The notes under the pieces are model-generated. The model was not told where the DNA came from. It searched no databases and saw only the letters and a list, made by a program, of their open reading frames with translations. From positions 1 through 64,000 of the forward strand of contig NZ_FNHQ01000013.1 of assembly GCF_900103535.1 (NCBI RefSeq): a stretch of DNA of 64,000 nucleotides. Direction: 5' to 3'. This document shows, piece after piece, positions 10,318-19,751 of this stretch. A program made the position numbers and the translations under genes. Source of the DNA: Megasphaera paucivorans. Its GTDB lineage: Bacteria > Bacillota > Negativicutes > Veillonellales > Megasphaeraceae. Positions within the stretch are counted from its first letter, which is position 1. Every line of letters starts with the position of its first letter.

Positions 10318-11607
10318 ATGAAACGCTCACGAAGAATTTTGGGTGCAGCACTACTCATTGGTAGTTTTTATACAGCTGCAGCGTGGGCAGCATCGGATGA
10401 GCCGGATTCGATCATTATCCGCAAACACCCTATGCCGATAGAACAGACAGTAGGGAAGACGGCGGGAAAAACGACTACGACAGCAACGACGCAGGCCGAC
10501 GATACTACAAAAACGACCGGAACACCGCGTAACAGCACCGCAAAAAATGATGCGGCCAAGGACGCGAACTTGGCTAAACCCGAAGGAAAAGACCGTTATG
10601 AGGAGGAAGTAATACCCAATCCCAAATTATCCGATATGGCCGTAATTCCCTTGTATATTATACCGCTGACGGAAAAAGATTTTACCATCGGGGGCCTGGG
10701 TGCCGGCGATATGATGACGAAAGTACGGCGTGTACTGGGCAGTCCGGAAAGATATTTGGTTAGTGAACACTATACTACGCTGCGGTATAATGATGACACG
10801 CAAAAGCTGCGGGTCGTTCTGCGCAACGATACGATTGATATGCTCAAAGAGCCGAACGAACAGGGAAACCGTGTACAAGTCGGCGTCAATTCTATCTTTC
10901 TGGCGCAGGGAACGAATATAGCGGCAGGCCGCGACATCCATCTGGGATATCCGGTGGAGTCGGTCATACGGCGGTACGGGGCACCGACGAATATTTTGCG
11001 TGATACGGATTCCAATATCTATTACATGGTATATGAGAGTCCGCGAAAAGATACGATGCTTGTTTTTGCCATCTATAACCGGAAAGTGGAACGGATCGCG
11101 CTGATGCCGCCGCGCACACCGTACATCGATCCACCGAGTGAGACATTGCCGATCAATGCCATGTTTGCTCCCAGAGATTTTTCCCTTATGGGATTTTCAC
11201 TGGAAGATCCATTTGAAGCCAATAAATATAATATGTGGACTAATATGATAACCAATAAGGGCAACAAATTTTGGATCTACGGTGATTATGGAGTGGAAAT
11301 AGATCGACACAATACGATAAAGCGTGTGTTTCTGATGACAAATAATGCCTATACGAACCGTGGAGCGACGTTAGGCTATCATGTATCTACGATTTTAGGG
11401 CTGTACGGACTGCCGCAGCGGCTGGAAAAAGGTTCCGACGGCAGCAAATCTGTCGACGGATATTTCTATGACAACCCATACCAAAAAGGCACTTCCCTGT
11501 TATTCGTTGTGGATCATGCGCAAAATTATGTGGAGGATGTGCTTCTTCTCAATACTCCTATCGAAGATTTGCAGAATCCCAAGAAGCGATATGGTCTGGA
11601 AGCATAG
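10318..11607 (+). CDS. Secreted protein with four related modules, function unknown
   Basis: The 429-residue product begins with a clear signal peptide (MKRSRR, hydrophobic core, cleavage near AWA/AS at about 24). A Thr/Ala-rich low-complexity linker runs to about residue 110. Four segments of about 60 residues follow, starting near 125, 205, 285 and 350. Three share the pattern G-h-G-x3-V-x3-h-G-x-P, and all end in a beta-rich part. This recalls the BamE/SmpA or BLIP-like fold, but that is inference. The ATG at 10318 is chosen because GAAAGGA precedes it and the signal peptide starts there; a longer frame would run through the lysS terminator. Confidence 0.75.
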   Translation: MKRSRRILGAALLIGSFYTAAAWAASDEPDSIIIRKHPMPIEQTVGKTAGKTTTTATTQADDTTKTTGTPRNSTAKNDAAKDANLAKPEGKDRYEEEVIPNPKLSDMAVIPLYIIPLTEKDFTIGGLGAGDMMTKVRRVLGSPERYLVSEHYTTLRYNDDTQKLRVVLRNDTIDMLKEPNEQGNRVQVGVNSIFLAQGTNIAAGRDIHLGYPVESVIRRYGAPTNILRDTDSNIYYMVYESPRKDTMLVFAIYNRKVERIALMPPRTPYIDPPSETLPINAMFAPRDFSLMGFSLEDPFEANKYNMWTNMITNKGNKFWIYGDYGVEIDRHNTIKRVFLMTNNAYTNRGATLGYHVSTILGLYGLPQRLEKGSDGSKSVDGYFYDNPYQKGTSLLFVVDHAQNYVEDVLLLNTPIEDLQNPKKRYGLEA

Positions 11608-11658: not shown

Positions 11659-11688
11659 TTTACTTATGCAGGCCAGTTCCAGTATAAT
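11659..11688 (+). promoter_or_regulatory. Promoter for the brxF-like gene
   Basis: TTACTT (11660-11665), 17 bases and TATAAT (11683-11688). It serves a single-gene unit. Confidence 0.6.
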
Positions 11689-11722
11689 AAAGATAACAAT
11701 AAAGCAGATGAAGGTGATTCCT

Positions 11723-12187
11723 ATGGTTACAGATGCAGAGGTTTTGAAACGCTGGAAGTACATTGCCCAGGATGAAGAAAAATTGCTGATTCTTATCGGC
11801 GGTCCGGGCTCCGGCAAAAGTAGACTGATTCGAGAATTAACGTACCAGGAAGGATGGAAGATCGTCGATGCAAAAGAACTATTCGATGATGAGTTTTTGG
11901 AAATTCCACGGGCCGATCGTCCCGAACAAGCGATTTCTCTTATCTCGGCTGCGATTCACAGACTGAATGCACGTGTAGTAATGATTGACAATGTTGGGTT
12001 TTTATTTGCACCAATTTTGAACCTGAATCCCGTAAAGATGCTAAAACAGCTCAGTCATGAATGCCCCCTGATCGTGAGCTGGCGTGGACACATTGAAAAA
12101 GATACACTGTACTTTGAACATAATGGGGATCCAAAATATGCTAAGTTTAAGGTAGAAAACATGAATCATGTAGTTTCTTTGGATTAA
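11723..12187 (+). CDS. BrxF-like P-loop ATPase (BREX type 3 family), isolated
   Basis: The 154-residue protein has Walker A GGPGSGKS at residues 26-33 and a Walker B-like VVMIDN at 85-90. LFAPILNLNPVKMLKQLS and a C-terminal block around IVSWRGHIEKDTLYFE and DPKYAKF follow. From memory, the same order marks BrxF of BREX-3 phage defence (DNIE.LF, DPL..L..LSR, W.G, L.YA, HPEYR). BrxF is a small ATPase whose role in BREX-3 is unclear. No brxA, brxC, pglX, pglZ or brxHII gene is near; the neighbours are a secreted protein and aspartate decarboxylase. ATG 11723 is preferred because AAGGTG lies six bases before it. It has its own promoter and terminator. Confidence 0.65.
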   Translation: MVTDAEVLKRWKYIAQDEEKLLILIGGPGSGKSRLIRELTYQEGWKIVDAKELFDDEFLEIPRADRPEQAISLISAAIHRLNARVVMIDNVGFLFAPILNLNPVKMLKQLSHECPLIVSWRGHIEKDTLYFEHNGDPKYAKFKVENMNHVVSLD

Positions 12188-12198
12188 AAGGCACGGTG

Positions 12199-12243
12199 AA
12201 GAGGCTGTACTGACTAGGATACTGTCAGTACAGCCTCTTTTTG
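12199..12243 (+). terminator. Terminator after the brxF-like gene
   Basis: Sixteen-base perfect arms (12199-12214 and 12224-12239) with a nine-base loop and a T run. Confidence 0.92.
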
Positions 12244-12429: not shown

Positions 12430-12507
12430 ATGATGCGGGTATTTGGCAGCGCTGCGGCTGCTGCGTTAATACTTTCAACAAATACGTATGAACGGAGAAG
12501 AGAATGA
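12430..12507 (+). CDS. Possible 25-residue leader peptide
   Basis: ATG at 12430 after GAAGGGCGG opens a 25-codon frame, rich in Ala in its first half and ending TYERRRE. Its TGA shares bases with the next ATG (12504-12507, ATGA), so the two could be translationally coupled. The frame covers the Shine-Dalgarno of the downstream gene. No homologue is recognised and it may be chance. Confidence 0.3.
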   Translation: MMRVFGSAAAAALILSTNTYERRRE

Positions 12508-14090
12508 TAAAAAAAGCCTATGAACGGGAATGGGAAAAACTGGGAGTATTTGAAGTAAGCAACAAATTAATTGATCTAGCACAAAAAAATAAAAAGTACA
12601 GTACGTTTTTGAATGCCGGACGAGGAAATCCTAACTGGATCAATACGCTGGGACGCCGTGCATTTGCCCGGTTTCTTGAATTTGGCATGGTTGAATCAGA
12701 ACGTACGATGCAGGACGGCGATCTAGCCGGATATATCGAAGGCGATAAGATCGAAAGCCGGTTTGATCAGTTTTTCAGTCAAGAAAACCGTGTGGATTCC
12801 TTTATTCGTGAAGCGATGGAATATGCCGAGCATACGCTGTCCATTGATAAGAAAGAGTGTATTCTTGAATTATCCAATGGTATTGCAGGAAATAATTATC
12901 CCGTTCCCAGCAGATGTCTGGTAAATGTGGAAAAAGTCCTCAATGCATATTTGGAGGAGACCTTGTATCCGCAAACGGGATTGGCAAAGACGACAAAACT
13001 ATTTCCCGTTGAAGGCGGAACCGCGGCGATTGTATATATTTTTGATTCACTCAAACACAACAGGCTGCTGCATGAAGGCGATCAAATTGCCATCAATATG
13101 CCGATTTTTACGCCATATATCCAGATACCACGCCTTACAAACTTTCAATTAACCGAGATTAACGTGACCTCTACAAAAGAAAGCAAGTGGGAAATCGCAA
13201 AAGAAGAAATGGAAAAACTTCTTGATCCGGCCATCAAGGCATTTTTTCTCGTAAATCCCTCCAATCCCGGCGCACACTCCTTGGGAAGCGAGTCCTTGCG
13301 GCAGCTTAAGAAAATTGTGGATCAGCGCAAGGACCTGATCATTATTACCGACGATGTATACGGGACTTTTGTCGATCGGTTCCAGTCGGTGTATGGACTG
13401 GCTCCGTATAATACCCTGCTGGTATACTCGTTTTCCAAACTATTCGGATGTACCGGATGGAGATTGGGATTAATTGCCGCCAATGAACACAATGTGTGTA
13501 ATGATCTGCTGGAAAAGCTGCCGGAAGAAGAAAAATGCATATTAGACAGCGATTATTCCATTGTAACGACAAAGACACGGCAATTGCCTATATTAGACCG
13601 TATTTGTGCAGACAGCCGCTCGATCGGGTTGTATCATACCAGCGGCCTAAGCACACCGCAGCAATGTTTGATGGCGTTATTTTCCCTGACGCATCTGGTC
13701 TGCCAAAAACAAGAAGACATGTACTTTAAAAGTGCAGATGCCATTGTGGCACGGCGATATCATATACTGTGCGAGGCACTGGGAATTCCGGAAGACAATT
13801 CGCCGACCAGCGCAAAATATTATACGATTATCGATATATACCATATAGCAGAACAAAAATACGGAAAATCGTTCCGCACGTATCTGGAAAAAAATGTAGA
13901 GCAGATAGATTTTCTAGTGCGTCTGTCAAAAGAAAAAGGATTGGTTTTGATGGCGGGAATGGGATTTGATGCACCGGCGGGCACGCTGCGTATCTCTCAG
14001 GCCAATTTACCGGACGAGGACTATCGTCAAATCGGCATTCGCATTCTTGCGCTATTAGAGGAATATTACCGGAAATATAGTCGCTCCTAG
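12504..14090 (+). CDS. aspD: Bifunctional aspartate aminotransferase / aspartate 4-decarboxylase
   Basis: PLP enzyme that removes the beta-carboxylate of aspartate to give alanine and CO2, with side aspartate transaminase activity. The 528-residue protein is as long as known Asd/AspD enzymes (about 530), much longer than ordinary aminotransferases, and has their N-terminal GRGNPNWINTLGRRAF stretch. The PLP lysine is K312 in YSFSKLFGCTGWRLG; NPSNPGAHS lies upstream. In other bacteria the gene is paired with the aspartate:alanine antiporter aspT, which together create a proton gradient; no aspT is in this window. The start follows GGAGAAGAG. Confidence 0.9.
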   Translation: MIKKAYEREWEKLGVFEVSNKLIDLAQKNKKYSTFLNAGRGNPNWINTLGRRAFARFLEFGMVESERTMQDGDLAGYIEGDKIESRFDQFFSQENRVDSFIREAMEYAEHTLSIDKKECILELSNGIAGNNYPVPSRCLVNVEKVLNAYLEETLYPQTGLAKTTKLFPVEGGTAAIVYIFDSLKHNRLLHEGDQIAINMPIFTPYIQIPRLTNFQLTEINVTSTKESKWEIAKEEMEKLLDPAIKAFFLVNPSNPGAHSLGSESLRQLKKIVDQRKDLIIITDDVYGTFVDRFQSVYGLAPYNTLLVYSFSKLFGCTGWRLGLIAANEHNVCNDLLEKLPEEEKCILDSDYSIVTTKTRQLPILDRICADSRSIGLYHTSGLSTPQQCLMALFSLTHLVCQKQEDMYFKSADAIVARRYHILCEALGIPEDNSPTSAKYYTIIDIYHIAEQKYGKSFRTYLEKNVEQIDFLVRLSKEKGLVLMAGMGFDAPAGTLRISQANLPDEDYRQIGIRILALLEEYYRKYSRS

Positions 14091-14215: not shown

Positions 14216-15046
14216 ATGAACGATTATATCATTGCGGTCATACTCGGCGTTGTCGAAGGATTGACAGAATATCTTCCTGTTTCCTCCACGGGGCATATGA
14301 TCCTCGTCGGCGACTGGCTGGGCTTTGACGGACCGCGGGCCAGCGTCTTTGAAGTGTTTATTCAGCTAGGGGCTATCTTATCCGTTCTATTGATTTACAA
14401 GGAAAAATTTTTACGCATGGCACGGCAGTACCGGTGCTGGAATATGTATCGCCGGGAAAACTGGTTCCGCCATGATACGGGGCTGACCTTAGCCCATGTC
14501 GCGGCCGGCATTGTTCCGGTCATGGGTGTCGGCTACTTGGCGCATCATGCGATCAAGACCTACTTATTTTCTCCCGGCACCGTTATCATCGGGCTGATCC
14601 TCGGCGGCTTTTTTATGCTGGCTGCGGAAAAAGTGCATATGCGGGTTGTGTGTGACGATGTGGAAAAAATGACGATCATGCAGGCTTTTTTGGTAGGGGC
14701 CTTTCAAATACTGGCCTTATGGCCGGGGTTCTCCCGTTCCGGATCGACGATTTCCGGTGGTCTGTTTTTAGGATTGAGCCGTAAATGCGCTGCCGATTTT
14801 TGTTTTATTATCGCCGTACCGGTCATGGTCGTGGCCTGTATTTATGATTTGCTCAAAAATCTGAGTAACCTCGCCGGCGGGGATCTGATCATGATTGCGA
14901 TCGGATTTGTCGTGGCTTTTGCGGTAGCCTACGTTTCGGTTCTCTGGTTTCTTAAATTTCTCAATAAGTCCAGTTTGGCAAGTTTCGCCTACTATCGATT
15001 CGTAGTCGCACTGGTATCCTTCCTGCACTTTTTTGTATTGAACTAA
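14216..15046 (+). CDS. uppP: Undecaprenyl-diphosphatase UppP (BacA)
   Basis: Integral membrane enzyme that dephosphorylates undecaprenyl pyrophosphate to recycle the lipid carrier for peptidoglycan and surface polysaccharides. The 276-residue protein has the two family motifs: VEGLTEYLPVSSTGH at 13-27 and LWPGFSRSGSTISG near 170. It has about eight membrane segments. An extended -10 (TGGTATAAT, -10 at 14157-14162) lies upstream, and AAAGGAG precedes the ATG. A terminator follows. Confidence 0.95.
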   Translation: MNDYIIAVILGVVEGLTEYLPVSSTGHMILVGDWLGFDGPRASVFEVFIQLGAILSVLLIYKEKFLRMARQYRCWNMYRRENWFRHDTGLTLAHVAAGIVPVMGVGYLAHHAIKTYLFSPGTVIIGLILGGFFMLAAEKVHMRVVCDDVEKMTIMQAFLVGAFQILALWPGFSRSGSTISGGLFLGLSRKCAADFCFIIAVPVMVVACIYDLLKNLSNLAGGDLIMIAIGFVVAFAVAYVSVLWFLKFLNKSSLASFAYYRFVVALVSFLHFFVLN

Positions 15047-15123: not shown

Positions 15124-15573
15124 TTATTGGATGAATTCAGTCATTATTTCATCCATGAAGGCATCGGCGTGGACATCCTCCGGTAAATCCATGGAAATAT
15201 TTTCGAGCAGGGTAGGAAACATGATTTTGATTCCCTGTTCGAACACGAAATAATAATACTGCAGTTCATCGCTGCCATGTGTTACGACGGGAACCATCGC
15301 TTCGTTAACGGCAAAAGCGACATTATAAAAATCGACCATTTCTGTTTTGAGCCGATCAAGATCCACTTTTTCTTCACTATAATCCTGCATGAGATTCGTA
15401 CCCATCTGGGCCAGCATATCGGGAATCTGCGCCAGCTGTTCCGGCGGATCCAATTTGGCATGTTCCATGATGTGCAGCAAGGTATGCATGCTGCTGATAA
15501 TAGATTCGCAGAAGAAATTGTAGGTGAATATTCCTTCCGAATTCACAAGATTTGTATATACATGTTTTTCCAT
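15124..15573 (-). CDS. Hypothetical cytosolic protein, 149 aa
   Basis: Acidic, mostly alpha-helical protein without signal peptide, membrane segment or motif that I recognise. The start at 15573 is preceded by AAAGGAG. A promoter on the minus strand with -10 TATAAT (complement of 15609-15614) lies just upstream. It is convergent with uppP and divergent from the DUF805 gene. The reading frame is long, has a good ribosome-binding site and normal codon use, so it is very likely real. Function unknown. Confidence 0.7.
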   Translation of the reverse strand: MEKHVYTNLVNSEGIFTYNFFCESIISSMHTLLHIMEHAKLDPPEQLAQIPDMLAQMGTNLMQDYSEEKVDLDRLKTEMVDFYNVAFAVNEAMVPVVTHGSDELQYYYFVFEQGIKIMFPTLLENISMDLPEDVHADAFMDEIMTEFIQ

Positions 15574-15687
15574 ATAAGAGTCTCCTTTAGCTAATGTAAG
15601 ATAGACTTATTATATCATGATACGCGGTAATCGGAAACGGATAGAACAAGTAAGAAGTTTTTATTTGTATCTTCCGGTCAAATTCAT

Positions 15688-15716
15688 TTGAGTAAGATCG
15701 TAGAATATGATACCAT
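15688..15716 (+). promoter_or_regulatory. Promoter of the DUF805-feoAB unit
   Basis: TTGAGT (15688-15693), 17 bases and TACCAT (15711-15716) with a TGA extension before the -10. Confidence 0.6.
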
Positions 15717-15771
15717 TACTATGATAGCTAAATGTAAGCACAAGCTTTTTGAGCGCCGTTAGGAGGAAATT

Positions 15772-16326
15772 ATGTCTCGAGAAAAAAAGATCAAATTAAA
15801 GAAACGGTCGGATCAATCGATTAAAATCCGAAAAGGACTTGCCATGCCGGTCGGCCGCGTGGGAGAAAACAACGCAGTAAGTTTTCGTGATTGGCAGGAT
15901 CTCAAAGCCAAATATTACACGTTTCACGGACGCGTACAGCGCCGCCCGTTTATTTTGCGGACCCTGGTCCTTGTTTTTGCACAGATTCTGTTTTCCTTGA
16001 TTCTGTACAGCAAATTTGTGGAATCACTGATTATTGGACGCCCGGAACTTGCCGCTGTTTTTGCAATTATATTTATCGTATTGACGATTCCTGTCGTTTG
16101 GGCACAAATATCCTTGGGTATCAGACGGTGTCATGATTTCAATAAATCCGGCGCGTTATTTATCGTACCCTATGTCTGCTATATAGGAAGCCTGGTAGCT
16201 CCCGTACTGGGACTGCACAACTTGGAAATTCTTGTGCAATCCATTACCGCCGTATCGTATCTGGCGCTCTTTACCATAAAAGGAAACTCCGGTGACAATG
16301 CATACGGAGCCGAGCACGCACGCTGA
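15772..16326 (+). CDS. DUF805 family membrane protein
   Basis: The 184-residue protein has a Lys/Arg-rich N-terminus. The DUF805 hallmark FHGRVQRRPFILR then precedes the first membrane segment, RRCHDFNKSG follows the second, and two further segments come before a C-terminal KGNSGDNAYG. About four membrane segments are expected. The biochemical role of DUF805 is unknown. The stop is 43 bases before feoA, so it probably shares the feoAB transcript. The ATG follows AGGAGG. Confidence 0.85.
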   Translation: MSREKKIKLKKRSDQSIKIRKGLAMPVGRVGENNAVSFRDWQDLKAKYYTFHGRVQRRPFILRTLVLVFAQILFSLILYSKFVESLIIGRPELAAVFAIIFIVLTIPVVWAQISLGIRRCHDFNKSGALFIVPYVCYIGSLVAPVLGLHNLEILVQSITAVSYLALFTIKGNSGDNAYGAEHAR

Positions 16327-16369
16327 GATACAGCGTGCAGCTGAGAATACAGAGGGGGGAGGCGGACGA

Positions 16370-16588
16370 ATGACGTTGGATCAGGGAAAAGTAGGAATGA
16401 CCTATCTTGTAGAAGAACTATCGCTGCCGACTAAAATGGAGAAGCGCCTGCAGGCGCTAGGGATGACAAAAGGAACGAAAATCGCGGTCCTGAACAATAA
16501 AAATGCCGGTACTTTGATTATTAAGGTACGCGGGACACGGCTGGCTATCGGTAAAGGGATTTCCAGCCGTATACAAGTTAGGAGTTGA
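16370..16588 (+). CDS. feoA: Ferrous iron transport protein FeoA
   Basis: Small SH3-like cytosolic protein that supports FeoB-mediated Fe(II) uptake. The 72-residue product has RLQALGMTKGTKI and the C-terminal GTRLAIGKGISSRI, typical of FeoA. The ATG at 16370 follows the strong GGGGGAGG (16354-16361). A frame extending upstream to 16292 exists but would overlap the previous gene. It ends five bases before feoB. Confidence 0.93.
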   Translation: MTLDQGKVGMTYLVEELSLPTKMEKRLQALGMTKGTKIAVLNNKNAGTLIIKVRGTRLAIGKGISSRIQVRS

Positions 16589-16593
16589 ATACA

Positions 16594-18702
16594 GTGGAAC
16601 AGGATGTATCGAATGCCTCGAGCGGACGCAAGCATTTGCACCGCTATCGGCATGGCATAGCACACAAAGATTTGACAGTGGCATTTATCGGGAATCCGAA
16701 CTGCGGTAAAACGACACTGTTTAATGCGTATACGGGAGCCAACCTCAAAGTGGCCAATTGGCCGGGCGTAACGGTAGAGAAAGTAGAAGGCTCTGTTGTC
16801 GATCATGGTGTCACTATACATCTTGTCGATTTACCCGGAACATACAGCTTGACCTCCTATACCATGGAAGAACAAGTATCACGTAATTTTATATTGAGCG
16901 ATGAAGTCGATGTCATTATCGACGTGGTAGATGCATCGGCGCTGGAACGAAATCTGTATTTGACCCTGCAGCTCCTGGAACTGGGAAAACCGGTCGTGAT
17001 GGCACTGAATATGATGGATATTGTAGAAAAGCGGGGCATGGAAATTGACCTGCACCGCCTGCCGGAAATGCTCGGCATTCCTATCATTCCAGTATCGGCC
17101 CTAAAGCGGCGCGGATTGAGCGTGCTCCTGCATGCGGCCATTCATCATCGAGACCATGTCCATCCGGACCGGCTCGTACACGATCACTCCAGTCATACCC
17201 GGCATCGGCATAACCACCACAGTGAATTTGCCATGGTGTACAGCGACCTGCTGGAAGACAAGATCGATGTCATCAAAGAACAACTCAAGCTGCAGTATCC
17301 GCAGATGTTCAATCACCGCTGGCATGCACTCAAACTGTTGGAGCAAGATGCGGAGGTCACGAGGAACTACCCGATCGATGAGAAAGGCCGTATTGTTGAT
17401 AGAAGCTATGAAACGGATATTATTAACCAAAAATATGATTTTATCGAGGAAATCATACATGAAGTAGTCGTCAACCGAGAGGAAAAAGTAGCCGCCACAG
17501 AATACGCAGACCGTATATTGACCAACCGATGGCTCAGTATACCCGTATTTCTTCTGATCATGGCCGGCGTATTTTTCCTGACTTTTTATGTGGGTGATTA
17601 TTTAAAATCCTATTTTGAACTGGCACTGGATGTCATATCCGCACAAGCGACCAGCGGGCTGACCCTGCTCGGAGCCAATGATATGCTCATCTCACTCGTC
17701 GTCGAAGGAATTATTGCCGGGGTCGGCGGTATCCTGACCTTTCTGCCCAATATCTGCATTTTATTTCTGACACTGGCCTTTTTGGAAGACAGCGGCTACA
17801 TGTCGCGTGTCGCTTTTATTATGAATGACATTATGGAACGGCTGGGACTTTCGGGGCGTGCTTTTATCCCCATGATACTGGGATTTGGCTGCTCCGTGCC
17901 GGCGATCATGGCTTCGCGGGCGCTGGAAAATAAGACAGACCGGTATCGGACGATGCTCGTGACGCCGTTTATGTCCTGCAGTGCCAGACTGCCGATTTAT
18001 ATCCTGTTTTCAGGTATGTTTTTCCCGCAGAATTCGATGCTGGCAGCCTATTCCATGTATATCATCGGAATTGTCGTAGCCCTTCTTTCCTTATTGGGCA
18101 TGAACCTTGTGGAAAAACGGACGCAGGAAAATGCGCTGCTCATCGAACTGCCGGAATATAAACGTCCCAGCAGCCGTACCGTGGGCATTTATGTATGGGA
18201 AAAAGTAAAAGACTATCTGAGCCGGGCCGGTACCATTATCTTTGCCGCCTCTATTATCATGTGGTTCATTCTCAACTTCGGCCCAGGCGGCTATGGCGAA
18301 ATGACCAATAGCTACGGAGCACTTATGGGAAAATGGCTGGTGCCGATCTTTGCACCCATTGGTCTGGGATACTGGCAGATATCCTTAGCGCTTATCGCGG
18401 GGATATCTGCTAAAGAAGTCGTCGTATCCAGCTTTGTCGTCCTTTTTGACGGACTCAATATTAACTCCGGTGCGGCACTTATGAGCCTGGCAGGAACACT
18501 GGGAAGCGTAGGCTTTACTCCGCTCAATGCCTATTGCATGATGCTCTTTTCCCTGCTGTACATCCCCTGCGCAGCCACGCTGGCAACGGTACACTCTGAA
18601 TCACACAGTTGGAAATGGACGATCTTTTCCGCCGTCTTTCAAATTGCCGTTGCCTGGATCGTTACCTTTATCGTATACCAAGTAGGAAGCCGGATACTAT
18701 AA
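16594..18702 (+). CDS. feoB: Ferrous iron transporter FeoB
   Basis: Main Fe(II) permease of anaerobes. The N-terminal G domain has GNPNCGKT at residues 33-40, DLPGTYSL and NMMD, followed by a helical domain and two Gate-type membrane halves (first from about 308; GFGCSVPAI in the core). The 702-residue length is normal. Unusual is a histidine-rich stretch, 12 His in 32 residues at about 180-211, between the G domain and the helical region. It may bind metal. GTG 16594 is chosen because AGGAG (16580-16584) ends nine bases before it; the in-frame TTG at 16585 abuts that site. No FeoC follows. Confidence 0.95.
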   Translation: MEQDVSNASSGRKHLHRYRHGIAHKDLTVAFIGNPNCGKTTLFNAYTGANLKVANWPGVTVEKVEGSVVDHGVTIHLVDLPGTYSLTSYTMEEQVSRNFILSDEVDVIIDVVDASALERNLYLTLQLLELGKPVVMALNMMDIVEKRGMEIDLHRLPEMLGIPIIPVSALKRRGLSVLLHAAIHHRDHVHPDRLVHDHSSHTRHRHNHHSEFAMVYSDLLEDKIDVIKEQLKLQYPQMFNHRWHALKLLEQDAEVTRNYPIDEKGRIVDRSYETDIINQKYDFIEEIIHEVVVNREEKVAATEYADRILTNRWLSIPVFLLIMAGVFFLTFYVGDYLKSYFELALDVISAQATSGLTLLGANDMLISLVVEGIIAGVGGILTFLPNICILFLTLAFLEDSGYMSRVAFIMNDIMERLGLSGRAFIPMILGFGCSVPAIMASRALENKTDRYRTMLVTPFMSCSARLPIYILFSGMFFPQNSMLAAYSMYIIGIVVALLSLLGMNLVEKRTQENALLIELPEYKRPSSRTVGIYVWEKVKDYLSRAGTIIFAASIIMWFILNFGPGGYGEMTNSYGALMGKWLVPIFAPIGLGYWQISLALIAGISAKEVVVSSFVVLFDGLNINSGAALMSLAGTLGSVGFTPLNAYCMMLFSLLYIPCAATLATVHSESHSWKWTIFSAVFQIAVAWIVTFIVYQVGSRIL

Positions 18703-18815
18703 AGCAGGCGGGAAACGGATAAGGGCAGCTTCTCGGATCGCTGCTGTTGGAATAGAAAAGGTCGGAATATCATTATGTGAACTGTAATGTGATTTTAAAA
18801 AGTTTACATAAATAA

Positions 18816-18876
18816 TAGACAAGCTGGGGAAAACACTGTATAATAATTGCGTGTAAAAACGGGAACGTTTTTTCAC
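18816..18876 (+). promoter_or_regulatory. Promoter and 5' hairpin of the ecfA1A2T-truA operon
   Basis: TAGACA (18816-18821), 17 bases and TATAAT (18839-18844). The predicted first base is near 18851. There a hairpin begins: arms 18851-18860 and 18867-18876 apart from small mismatches, with a U-rich 3' arm. It may protect the 5' end or cause early termination. Confidence 0.65.
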
Positions 18877-18911
18877 TTTATGTACTATATAGGAGATGTA
18901 AGGAGATACGA

Positions 18912-19751
18912 ATGAGTATACCTATGATAAAGCTGGATCACATGAGCCATTCTTATACGGATGAAGAAGGAAAGCAAGTGTATGCCGTACGGGATGTATC
19001 GTTATCGATCCAGACCGGAGAATTCGTGGCGATTATCGGCACGAATGGTTCGGGAAAATCTACCTTGGCCAAGCATTTCAATGTTCTGCTTGTACCGACA
19101 GAGGGAACTTGTGAAGTCTGCGGCATGCGTACGGATGATCCTGATTTGACTTGGGATATCCGGCAGAAAGTCGGCATGGTTTTCCAGAATCCAGATAATC
19201 AGATCGTAGCCGCCATTGTGGAAGAAGATGTAGCCTTCGGACCGGAAAATCTGGGAGTGCCGTCGGAGGAAATAAAAAAACGTGTCAAAGCGGCGCTGGA
19301 ACGCGTCAATATGACGCAATACGCGCACCATGGTCCGCATCTGCTGAGCGGCGGCCAAAAGCAGCGTATTGCCATTGCCGGTATTTTGGCCATGCAGTCG
19401 CAATGCATCGTTCTCGATGAACCGACGGCCATGCTTGATCCGATCGGCCGCAAAGAAGTGATGGATACGATTCATCAGCTGAATGCAGAAGGAATCACCG
19501 TTATTTTGATTACCCATTTCATGGAGGAAGCCGTCACGGCAGATCGTGTTGTTGTTATCAATCATGGCAGACTGCAGATGGATGGCAAGCCCCGGGATAT
19601 TTTTACCCATGTACGGGAACTAAAGGACATGGGACTGGATGTGCCGGTTTCGGCTGAATTGGCCTTGCGTCTGCGGGAAAAGGGAATTTCACTGGACGGT
19701 ACGATCATAACAAAGGAAGAATTAGGGGACGCATTATGTCAATACAGTTAG
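18912..19751 (+). CDS. ecfA1: ECF transporter ATPase EcfA1
   Basis: One of the two ATPases that energise energy-coupling-factor vitamin transporters. The 279-residue ABC protein has Walker [10 protein letters not shown] at 43-51, Q-loop FQNPDNQIV, signature LLSGGQKQR and Walker [10 protein letters not shown]. The NPDNQ sequence at the Q-loop is typical of EcfA1. It overlaps ecfA2 by 16 bases. No S-component lies in this operon, which fits a shared (group II) module serving scattered S-components such as BioY at 5.6 kb. Confidence 0.95.

What the first reader, a model, noticed from the sequence alone, without database searches (positions are those of the whole stretch)
11659..12243. Isolated BrxF-like ATPase with no BREX-3 partners
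The 154-residue P-loop protein matches the motif order I remember for BrxF of BREX type 3. It sits alone between its own promoter and a perfect terminator, next to metabolic genes. Either a BREX-3 locus has been lost, or this ATPase works by itself or with proteins encoded elsewhere. A solitary, conserved member would be a lead to a new role for the family.
Basis: partly seen in the sequence, partly recalled or inferred. Interest (0 to 1): 0.6.

Follow-up and report, generated by a model that had tools for sequence, protein, structure and literature searches.

The report
Solitary BrxF-like ATPase, conserved core gene
A small protein whose family is known only from a multi-gene anti-phage system (BREX type 3) is here a stand-alone chromosomal gene that about 120 related gut and oral bacteria keep at one fixed place with an intact ATP-binding site, so it most likely does a different, still unknown job and its standard label is misleading.

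Summary
Window 11723-12187(+) encodes a 154-aa P-loop protein that matches NCBIfam BREX_3_BrxF at 99.7 bits (cut-off 50). It has its own promoter, identical at both hexamers in 8 relatives, and a perfect 16-bp terminator stem. No BREX-3 gene is in the genome; a BREX type 1 locus with its own BrxB lies on another contig. It is not a relic. In Negativicutes 120 genomes carry a solitary copy, at a conserved core-gene position (sigH-[gene]-pfkA-uppP, or exported protein-[gene]-uppP). 111 of these 120 genomes have no PglZ at all. The solitary copies form one clade, apart from brxC-linked BrxF even in two genomes that carry both. They are under strong purifying selection (omega 0.01-0.08). Walker A is intact in 120 of 121 and the Walker B aspartate in 121 of 121, against 22 and 31 of 43 BREX-linked copies. 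A confident AF2 model has BrxB as best solved match. Best reading: a single-gene, ATP-binding BrxF/BrxB-fold switch or adaptor separate from BREX-3; partner and function unknown. Membership in the BrxF sequence family is met; membership in a BREX-3 system is not.

The parts
11659..11688 (+). promoter (TTTACT, 18 nt, TATAAT)
   Evidence: consensus scan; both hexamers invariant in 8 Megasphaeraceae
11710..11718 (+). ribosome-binding region GAAGGTGAT
   Evidence: invariant in 8 Megasphaeraceae
11723..12187 (+). solitary BrxF-like P-loop protein, 154 aa
   Evidence: NF033453 99.7 bits, PADLOC BrxF 85 bits; conserved in 120 Negativicutes genomes
11798..11821 (+). Walker A (residues 26-33, GGPGSGKS)
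   Evidence: intact in 120 of 121 solitary loci
11975..11989 (+). Walker B strand ending in Asp89 (VVMID)
   Evidence: Asp in 121 of 121; the following residue is N, R or G, not Glu
12199..12243 (+). intrinsic terminator, 16-bp perfect stem, 9-nt loop, T tract
   Evidence: sequence read
10318..11607 (+). exported protein of unknown function, conserved upstream neighbour in Veillonellales
   Evidence: no Pfam or NCBIfam match over cut-off
14216..15046 (+). uppP, conserved downstream neighbour
   Evidence: NCBIfam undecaprenyl-diphosphate phosphatase; synteny

Best explanation
The gene encodes a stand-alone member of the BrxF/BrxB fold family that is a stable, vertically inherited chromosomal gene of Negativicutes, and neither a working nor a decaying part of a BREX-3 locus. 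SHOWN by computation: BrxF-family sequence; conserved position beside sigH/pfkA/uppP or exported-protein/uppP; no PglZ in most carriers; purifying selection; a nearly always intact ATP site; a confidently predicted minimal P-loop core whose best solved match is BrxB. INFERRED: it binds ATP, but because it has the Walker B aspartate without the following glutamate and no C-terminal helical lid, it hydrolyses slowly or only with residues lent by a partner or a second copy. It would then work as an ATP-dependent switch or adaptor, as BrxB docks on the BrxC AAA+ domain and holds PglZ, but for a host partner that is not yet known.
For: BrxF HMM 99.7 bits. 121 solitary loci in 120 genomes, 78 directly after sigH and 42 directly after the exported protein, one cut by a contig end. 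Solitary rows one side of a branch at 100/93, including in genomes that also hold a BREX-linked copy. Walker A 120/121 and Asp 121/121, against 22/43 and 31/43 in BREX-linked rows. Arg37 invariant in both solitary groups and rare in BREX rows. omega 0.01-0.08. Promoter conserved. 111 of 120 carriers without PglZ. AF2 pLDDT 92.9; BrxB of 9zll best match, Z 10.5. BrxB-BrxC interface holds ATP (PMC13326643).
Against: No partner, substrate or phenotype is known. The gene is cleanly absent from many Negativicutes (Selenomonadaceae-like f24, most of Dialister-like f2, some Veillonella and f29), so it is dispensable for the class as a whole. No neighbour is linked in all clades. Row counts are phylogenetically dependent. 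The AU test does not reject grouping one long-branch BREX row (L070) with the solitary clade. ATP binding and switching are untested.
Confidence: 0.7

Rival explanations
1. Remnant of a lost BREX-3 locus, non-functional or decaying.
For: BrxF family match without brxC or pglX nearby.
Against: Conserved position in 120 genomes, purifying selection, conserved promoter and intact ATP site, while BREX-linked copies are the eroded ones. Sites without the gene hold no BREX traces between the same neighbours.
Confidence: 0.04
2. Ancient domestication: a BREX-3 brxF left at the sigH locus in an early negativicute was kept for a new host function.
For: A BREX-3 locus lies just downstream of sigH in a distant genome (L211). 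Solitary copies branch among BREX-linked ones in the unrooted tree.
Against: The tree is unrooted and deep branches are weak. The L211 BrxF has an eroded Walker A, unlike the solitary type. Other solitary groups sit at unrelated loci.
Confidence: 0.4
3. A single-gene or core-encoded anti-phage sensor.
For: Its relatives are defence proteins; clean presence or absence between relatives.
Against: Slow evolution, vertical inheritance in a housekeeping gene cluster, no island or plasmid setting, no phage or viral match.
Confidence: 0.15
4. It serves a BREX locus elsewhere in the genome in trans.
For: The own genome has a BREX type 1 locus.
Against: That locus has its own brxB. 111 of 120 carriers have no PglZ.
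Confidence: 0.03
5. A generic AAA ATPase, with the BrxF match spurious.
For: Pfam AAA_22 is the best generic hit, and most structural matches below BrxB are AAA+ proteins.
Against: NF033453 matches residues 7-150 at twice its cut-off. F95, W120 and G122 outside the P-loop are shared with BREX BrxF. Generic Pfam hits stay under cut-off.
Confidence: 0.03

Closest known systems
BrxF of BREX type 3 (NCBIfam NF033453; PADLOC BrxF)
   Same: Sequence family over nearly full length; F95, W120 and G122 signature; size
   Different: No brxC, pglX or pglZ beside it; chromosomal core position; Walker A almost always intact; Arg37 invariant; slow evolution
BrxB of BREX type 1 (9zll)
   Same: Fold: Z 10.5 over 144 residues, the best solved match
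   Different: BrxB lacks key Walker residues (PMC12205998) and belongs to a complex with BrxC and PglZ; 10% identity
ORC/Cdc6, RFC and STAND-type AAA+ ATPases
   Same: Core P-loop fold (Z about 9); Walker A and Walker B aspartate
   Different: No Walker B glutamate and no C-terminal helical bundle in the model; a beta-rich stretch follows strand 4

Membership tests
BrxF sequence family (NF033453) | Score over the curated cut-off across the model | tested here: met
   99.7 bits against 50, model positions 4-147 of 149
BREX type 3 system | brxC and pglXI encoded with brxF | tested here: not met
   No type-3 BrxC or PglXI in the genome
BREX type 3 system | PglZ in the same locus | tested here: not met
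   The only PglZ is in a BREX type 1 locus on contig C67; 111 of 120 carriers have none
BREX type 3 system | BrxHII helicase and BrxA in the locus | tested here: not met
   Flanking genes in the window are lysS, exported protein, aspartate 4-decarboxylase and uppP
Inactive STAND (iSTAND) as described for BREX BrxB/BrxF | Eroded Walker A/B motifs | tested here: not met
   Walker A intact in 120 of 121 and Asp in 121 of 121
Inactive STAND (iSTAND) as described for BREX BrxB/BrxF | No C-terminal helical bundle; beta cap after strand 4 | tested here: met
   Model elements E116-125, E128-133, E136-143, E150-152 and no helix after residue 111
Canonical AAA+ ATPase | Walker B Asp-Glu and helical lid | tested here: not met
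   The residue after Asp89 is R, N or G; the model ends without a helical bundle
Canonical AAA+ ATPase | ATP hydrolysis | not testable with these tools
   Needs purified protein

The most novel reading that the evidence does not exclude
The solitary, ATP-competent proteins are the original form: a cellular ATPase family of Bacillota, with further solitary lineages outside Negativicutes, from which BREX-3 recruited BrxF and then often lost its ATP site. The Negativicutes gene would then mark a normal cellular pathway in which the BrxF/BrxB fold works without BREX.
Probability: 0.3. Interest if true: 0.75.

Novelty: new variant of a known kind. Interest (0 to 1): 0.6.

Why it matters
Databases name this protein 'BREX-3 system P-loop-containing protein BrxF', so genomes without any BREX-3 are annotated as carrying a piece of one. 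A slowly evolving, ATP-competent relative without BREX partners also gives a clean way to ask what the BrxF/BrxB module does on its own, which is still open in BREX research, and whether BREX took it from a cellular pathway.

Tried and rejected
BREX-3 relic: rejected on synteny, selection and intact ATP site. Partner in trans from BREX-1: rejected because 111 of 120 carriers lack PglZ and the local BREX-1 has its own BrxB. The exported neighbour as obligate partner: rejected, since it is kept in Dialister-like and Veillonella-family genomes that lack the gene and is absent as a full-length match outside the order. pfkA as obligate partner: not supported, because no pfkA adjoins the gene in Veillonellales. 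Phage origin: no match among phages or viral contigs; plasmid hits are BREX-3 brxF or a hypothetical protein at 24-30% identity. A sequence search of solved structures gave only P-loop matches. The class-wide alignment was too divergent for the genome-contig scan; a narrower one worked. Paper searches found no account of a solitary BrxF, but only open-access PMC papers are held, and no Veillonella essential-gene screen was found. The test of one clade for all solitary copies gave neither rejection (p 0.40) nor proof.

Full report
OBSERVATION. Window 11723-12187(+) encodes 154 aa. It matches NCBIfam BREX_3_BrxF at 99.7 bits (cut-off 50) over residues 7-150 and PADLOC BrxF at 85 bits. Generic families stay under their cut-offs; AAA_22 is best at 26.8 against 27. 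A promoter-like site at 11659-11688 is supported by comparison: TTTACT, TATAAT and the GAAGGTGAT ribosome site are identical in 8 Megasphaeraceae whose spacers vary. The terminator has a 16-bp perfect stem. Relatives end the gene with different sequences, most with a T-rich stretch.

GENOME CONTEXT. The genome has one copy. It has no type-3 BrxC beyond an 18.5-bit match to its type-1 BrxC and no PglXI. A PglZ on contig C67 belongs to a BREX type 1 locus with brxB, brxC, pglX, pglZ and brxL, plus HerA and SIR2 genes. In that locus brxC reads as two overlapping pieces in different frames.

DISTRIBUTION AND SYNTENY. The BrxF model is over cut-off in 16 of 17 genomes of the family and 122 of 380 of the class. 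I fetched the surroundings of the hits over cut-off in the class. 121 loci in 120 genomes are solitary: 78 have sigH directly upstream, 42 have the exported protein, and one is cut by a contig end with pfkA downstream. The commonest order is gltX-cysE-cysS-mrnC-thyX-rlmB-(vanW)-yacP-sigH-[gene]-pfkA-uppP-tuf/secE-nusG-rplK-rplA. In Veillonellales it is [exported protein]-[gene]-uppP, or in Veillonella [exported protein]-[gene]-secE/nusG or tuf. Only four hits (L070, L075, L164, L166) sit beside brxC and pglX; genomes G105 and G053 carry both kinds. The same-genus genome without a hit (G001, 87% complete) also lacks the exported protein that nearly all of the order has, so its absence may be an assembly gap. 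In genomes without the gene the same neighbours lie directly together: sigH-pfkA, or exported protein-uppP. The gene is therefore gained or lost as one clean unit. Median gaps are 12 nt to pfkA (59 loci) and 29.5 nt from the exported-protein gene (42 loci), which suggests co-transcription in many lineages.

NOT A BREX PART. PglZ is over cut-off in 31 of 380 genomes, and in 9 of the 120 solitary carriers (G000, G007, G013, G015, G053, G080, G081, G105, G312). In the wider phylum sample most hits examined are followed at once by brxC. Further solitary-looking groups appear there: f44 and f136, f87, and Erysipelotrichaceae.

SEQUENCE. In an 81-row tree the 40 solitary Negativicutes rows form one side of a branch (100/93, all 200 bootstrap trees), apart from the BREX-linked rows. 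Long BREX branches limit this: the AU test does not reject adding L070 (p 0.32), nor a union of the two solitary groups (p 0.40). Walker A is intact in 120 of 121 solitary Negativicutes rows, 9 of 9 rows first labelled other (one, L187, was moved to BREX afterwards because a BrxA-like gene follows it; my reading) and 22 of 43 BREX-linked rows; the one exception is L163. Arg37 is invariant in both solitary groups (121 of 121, 8 of 8) and present in 4 of 44 BREX rows. Row counts are not independent, because relatives share ancestry. omega is 0.01-0.08 in six pairs with dS 0.18-2.1; comparisons with the window itself are saturated at silent sites.

STRUCTURE. The AF2 model has pLDDT 92.9 and pTM 0.87. 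The best solved match is BrxB in the BrxC-BrxB-PglZ complex 9zll: Foldseek E 3.2e-4; Z 10.5, 3.5 A over 144 residues, ahead of ORC and RFC subunits at 9.1. In that complex ATP lies between BrxB and BrxC (PMC13326643). BREX BrxB and BrxF are described as inactive STAND domains with lost Walker motifs and fast evolution (PMC12839542). The solitary protein has the same kind of fold but the opposite state: an intact ATP site and slow evolution.

MECHANISM. Shown: a minimal P-loop core, intact Walker A, Walker B aspartate without a following glutamate, no helical lid, strong constraint. Inferred: ATP binding with slow or partner-assisted hydrolysis, and a switch or adaptor role for a host partner, by analogy with BrxB. 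The partner is unknown. sigH, pfkA, uppP and the exported protein are candidates by position only, and none is linked in all clades.

ORIGIN. The tree is unrooted. Either an ancient BREX-3 gene was domesticated at the sigH locus, or BREX-3 recruited a cellular ATPase. A BREX-3 locus just downstream of sigH in a distant genome (L211) shows that insertion at this site happens, but its BrxF has an eroded Walker A and is not of the solitary type.

CONCLUSION. The gene belongs to the BrxF sequence family but not to a BREX-3 system, and its database name misleads. A search of open-access papers found no description of the solitary form, which does not exclude one elsewhere.

Noticed in passing
L219 (G000:C67) 15533-19158: The BREX type 1 locus of the window's own genome has brxC in two overlapping pieces in different frames (model positions 1-978 and 986-1190): a frameshift, sequencing error or split gene. 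HerA and SIR2 genes sit inside the locus.
   Followed up: partly
L211 (G498:C12:55600-66000): A BREX-3 locus (brxF, brxC, pglX) lies just downstream of rlmB-yacP-sigH in a distant genome of the phylum; its BrxF has lost Walker A.
   Followed up: partly
L244 5956-6384; L199-L203, L206, L197, L212: Further BrxF-like genes with intact Walker A and no BREX neighbours, in Erysipelotrichaceae and in families f44, f136 and f87 of the phylum, at unrelated loci.
   Followed up: partly
L163 (G114:C29) 164-652: The one solitary copy with a lost Walker A, on a long branch and still followed by pfkA; the contig starts just upstream.
   Followed up: no
window 10318-11607: Exported protein without a Pfam or NCBIfam match, with a repeated 'G..YG.P' motif, full-length in nearly all Veillonellales genomes and not outside the order.
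   Followed up: partly
window 12504-14090: A bifunctional aspartate transaminase/aspartate 4-decarboxylase gene stands between the BrxF-like gene and uppP here; the other Megasphaeraceae loci examined have uppP next.
   Followed up: no
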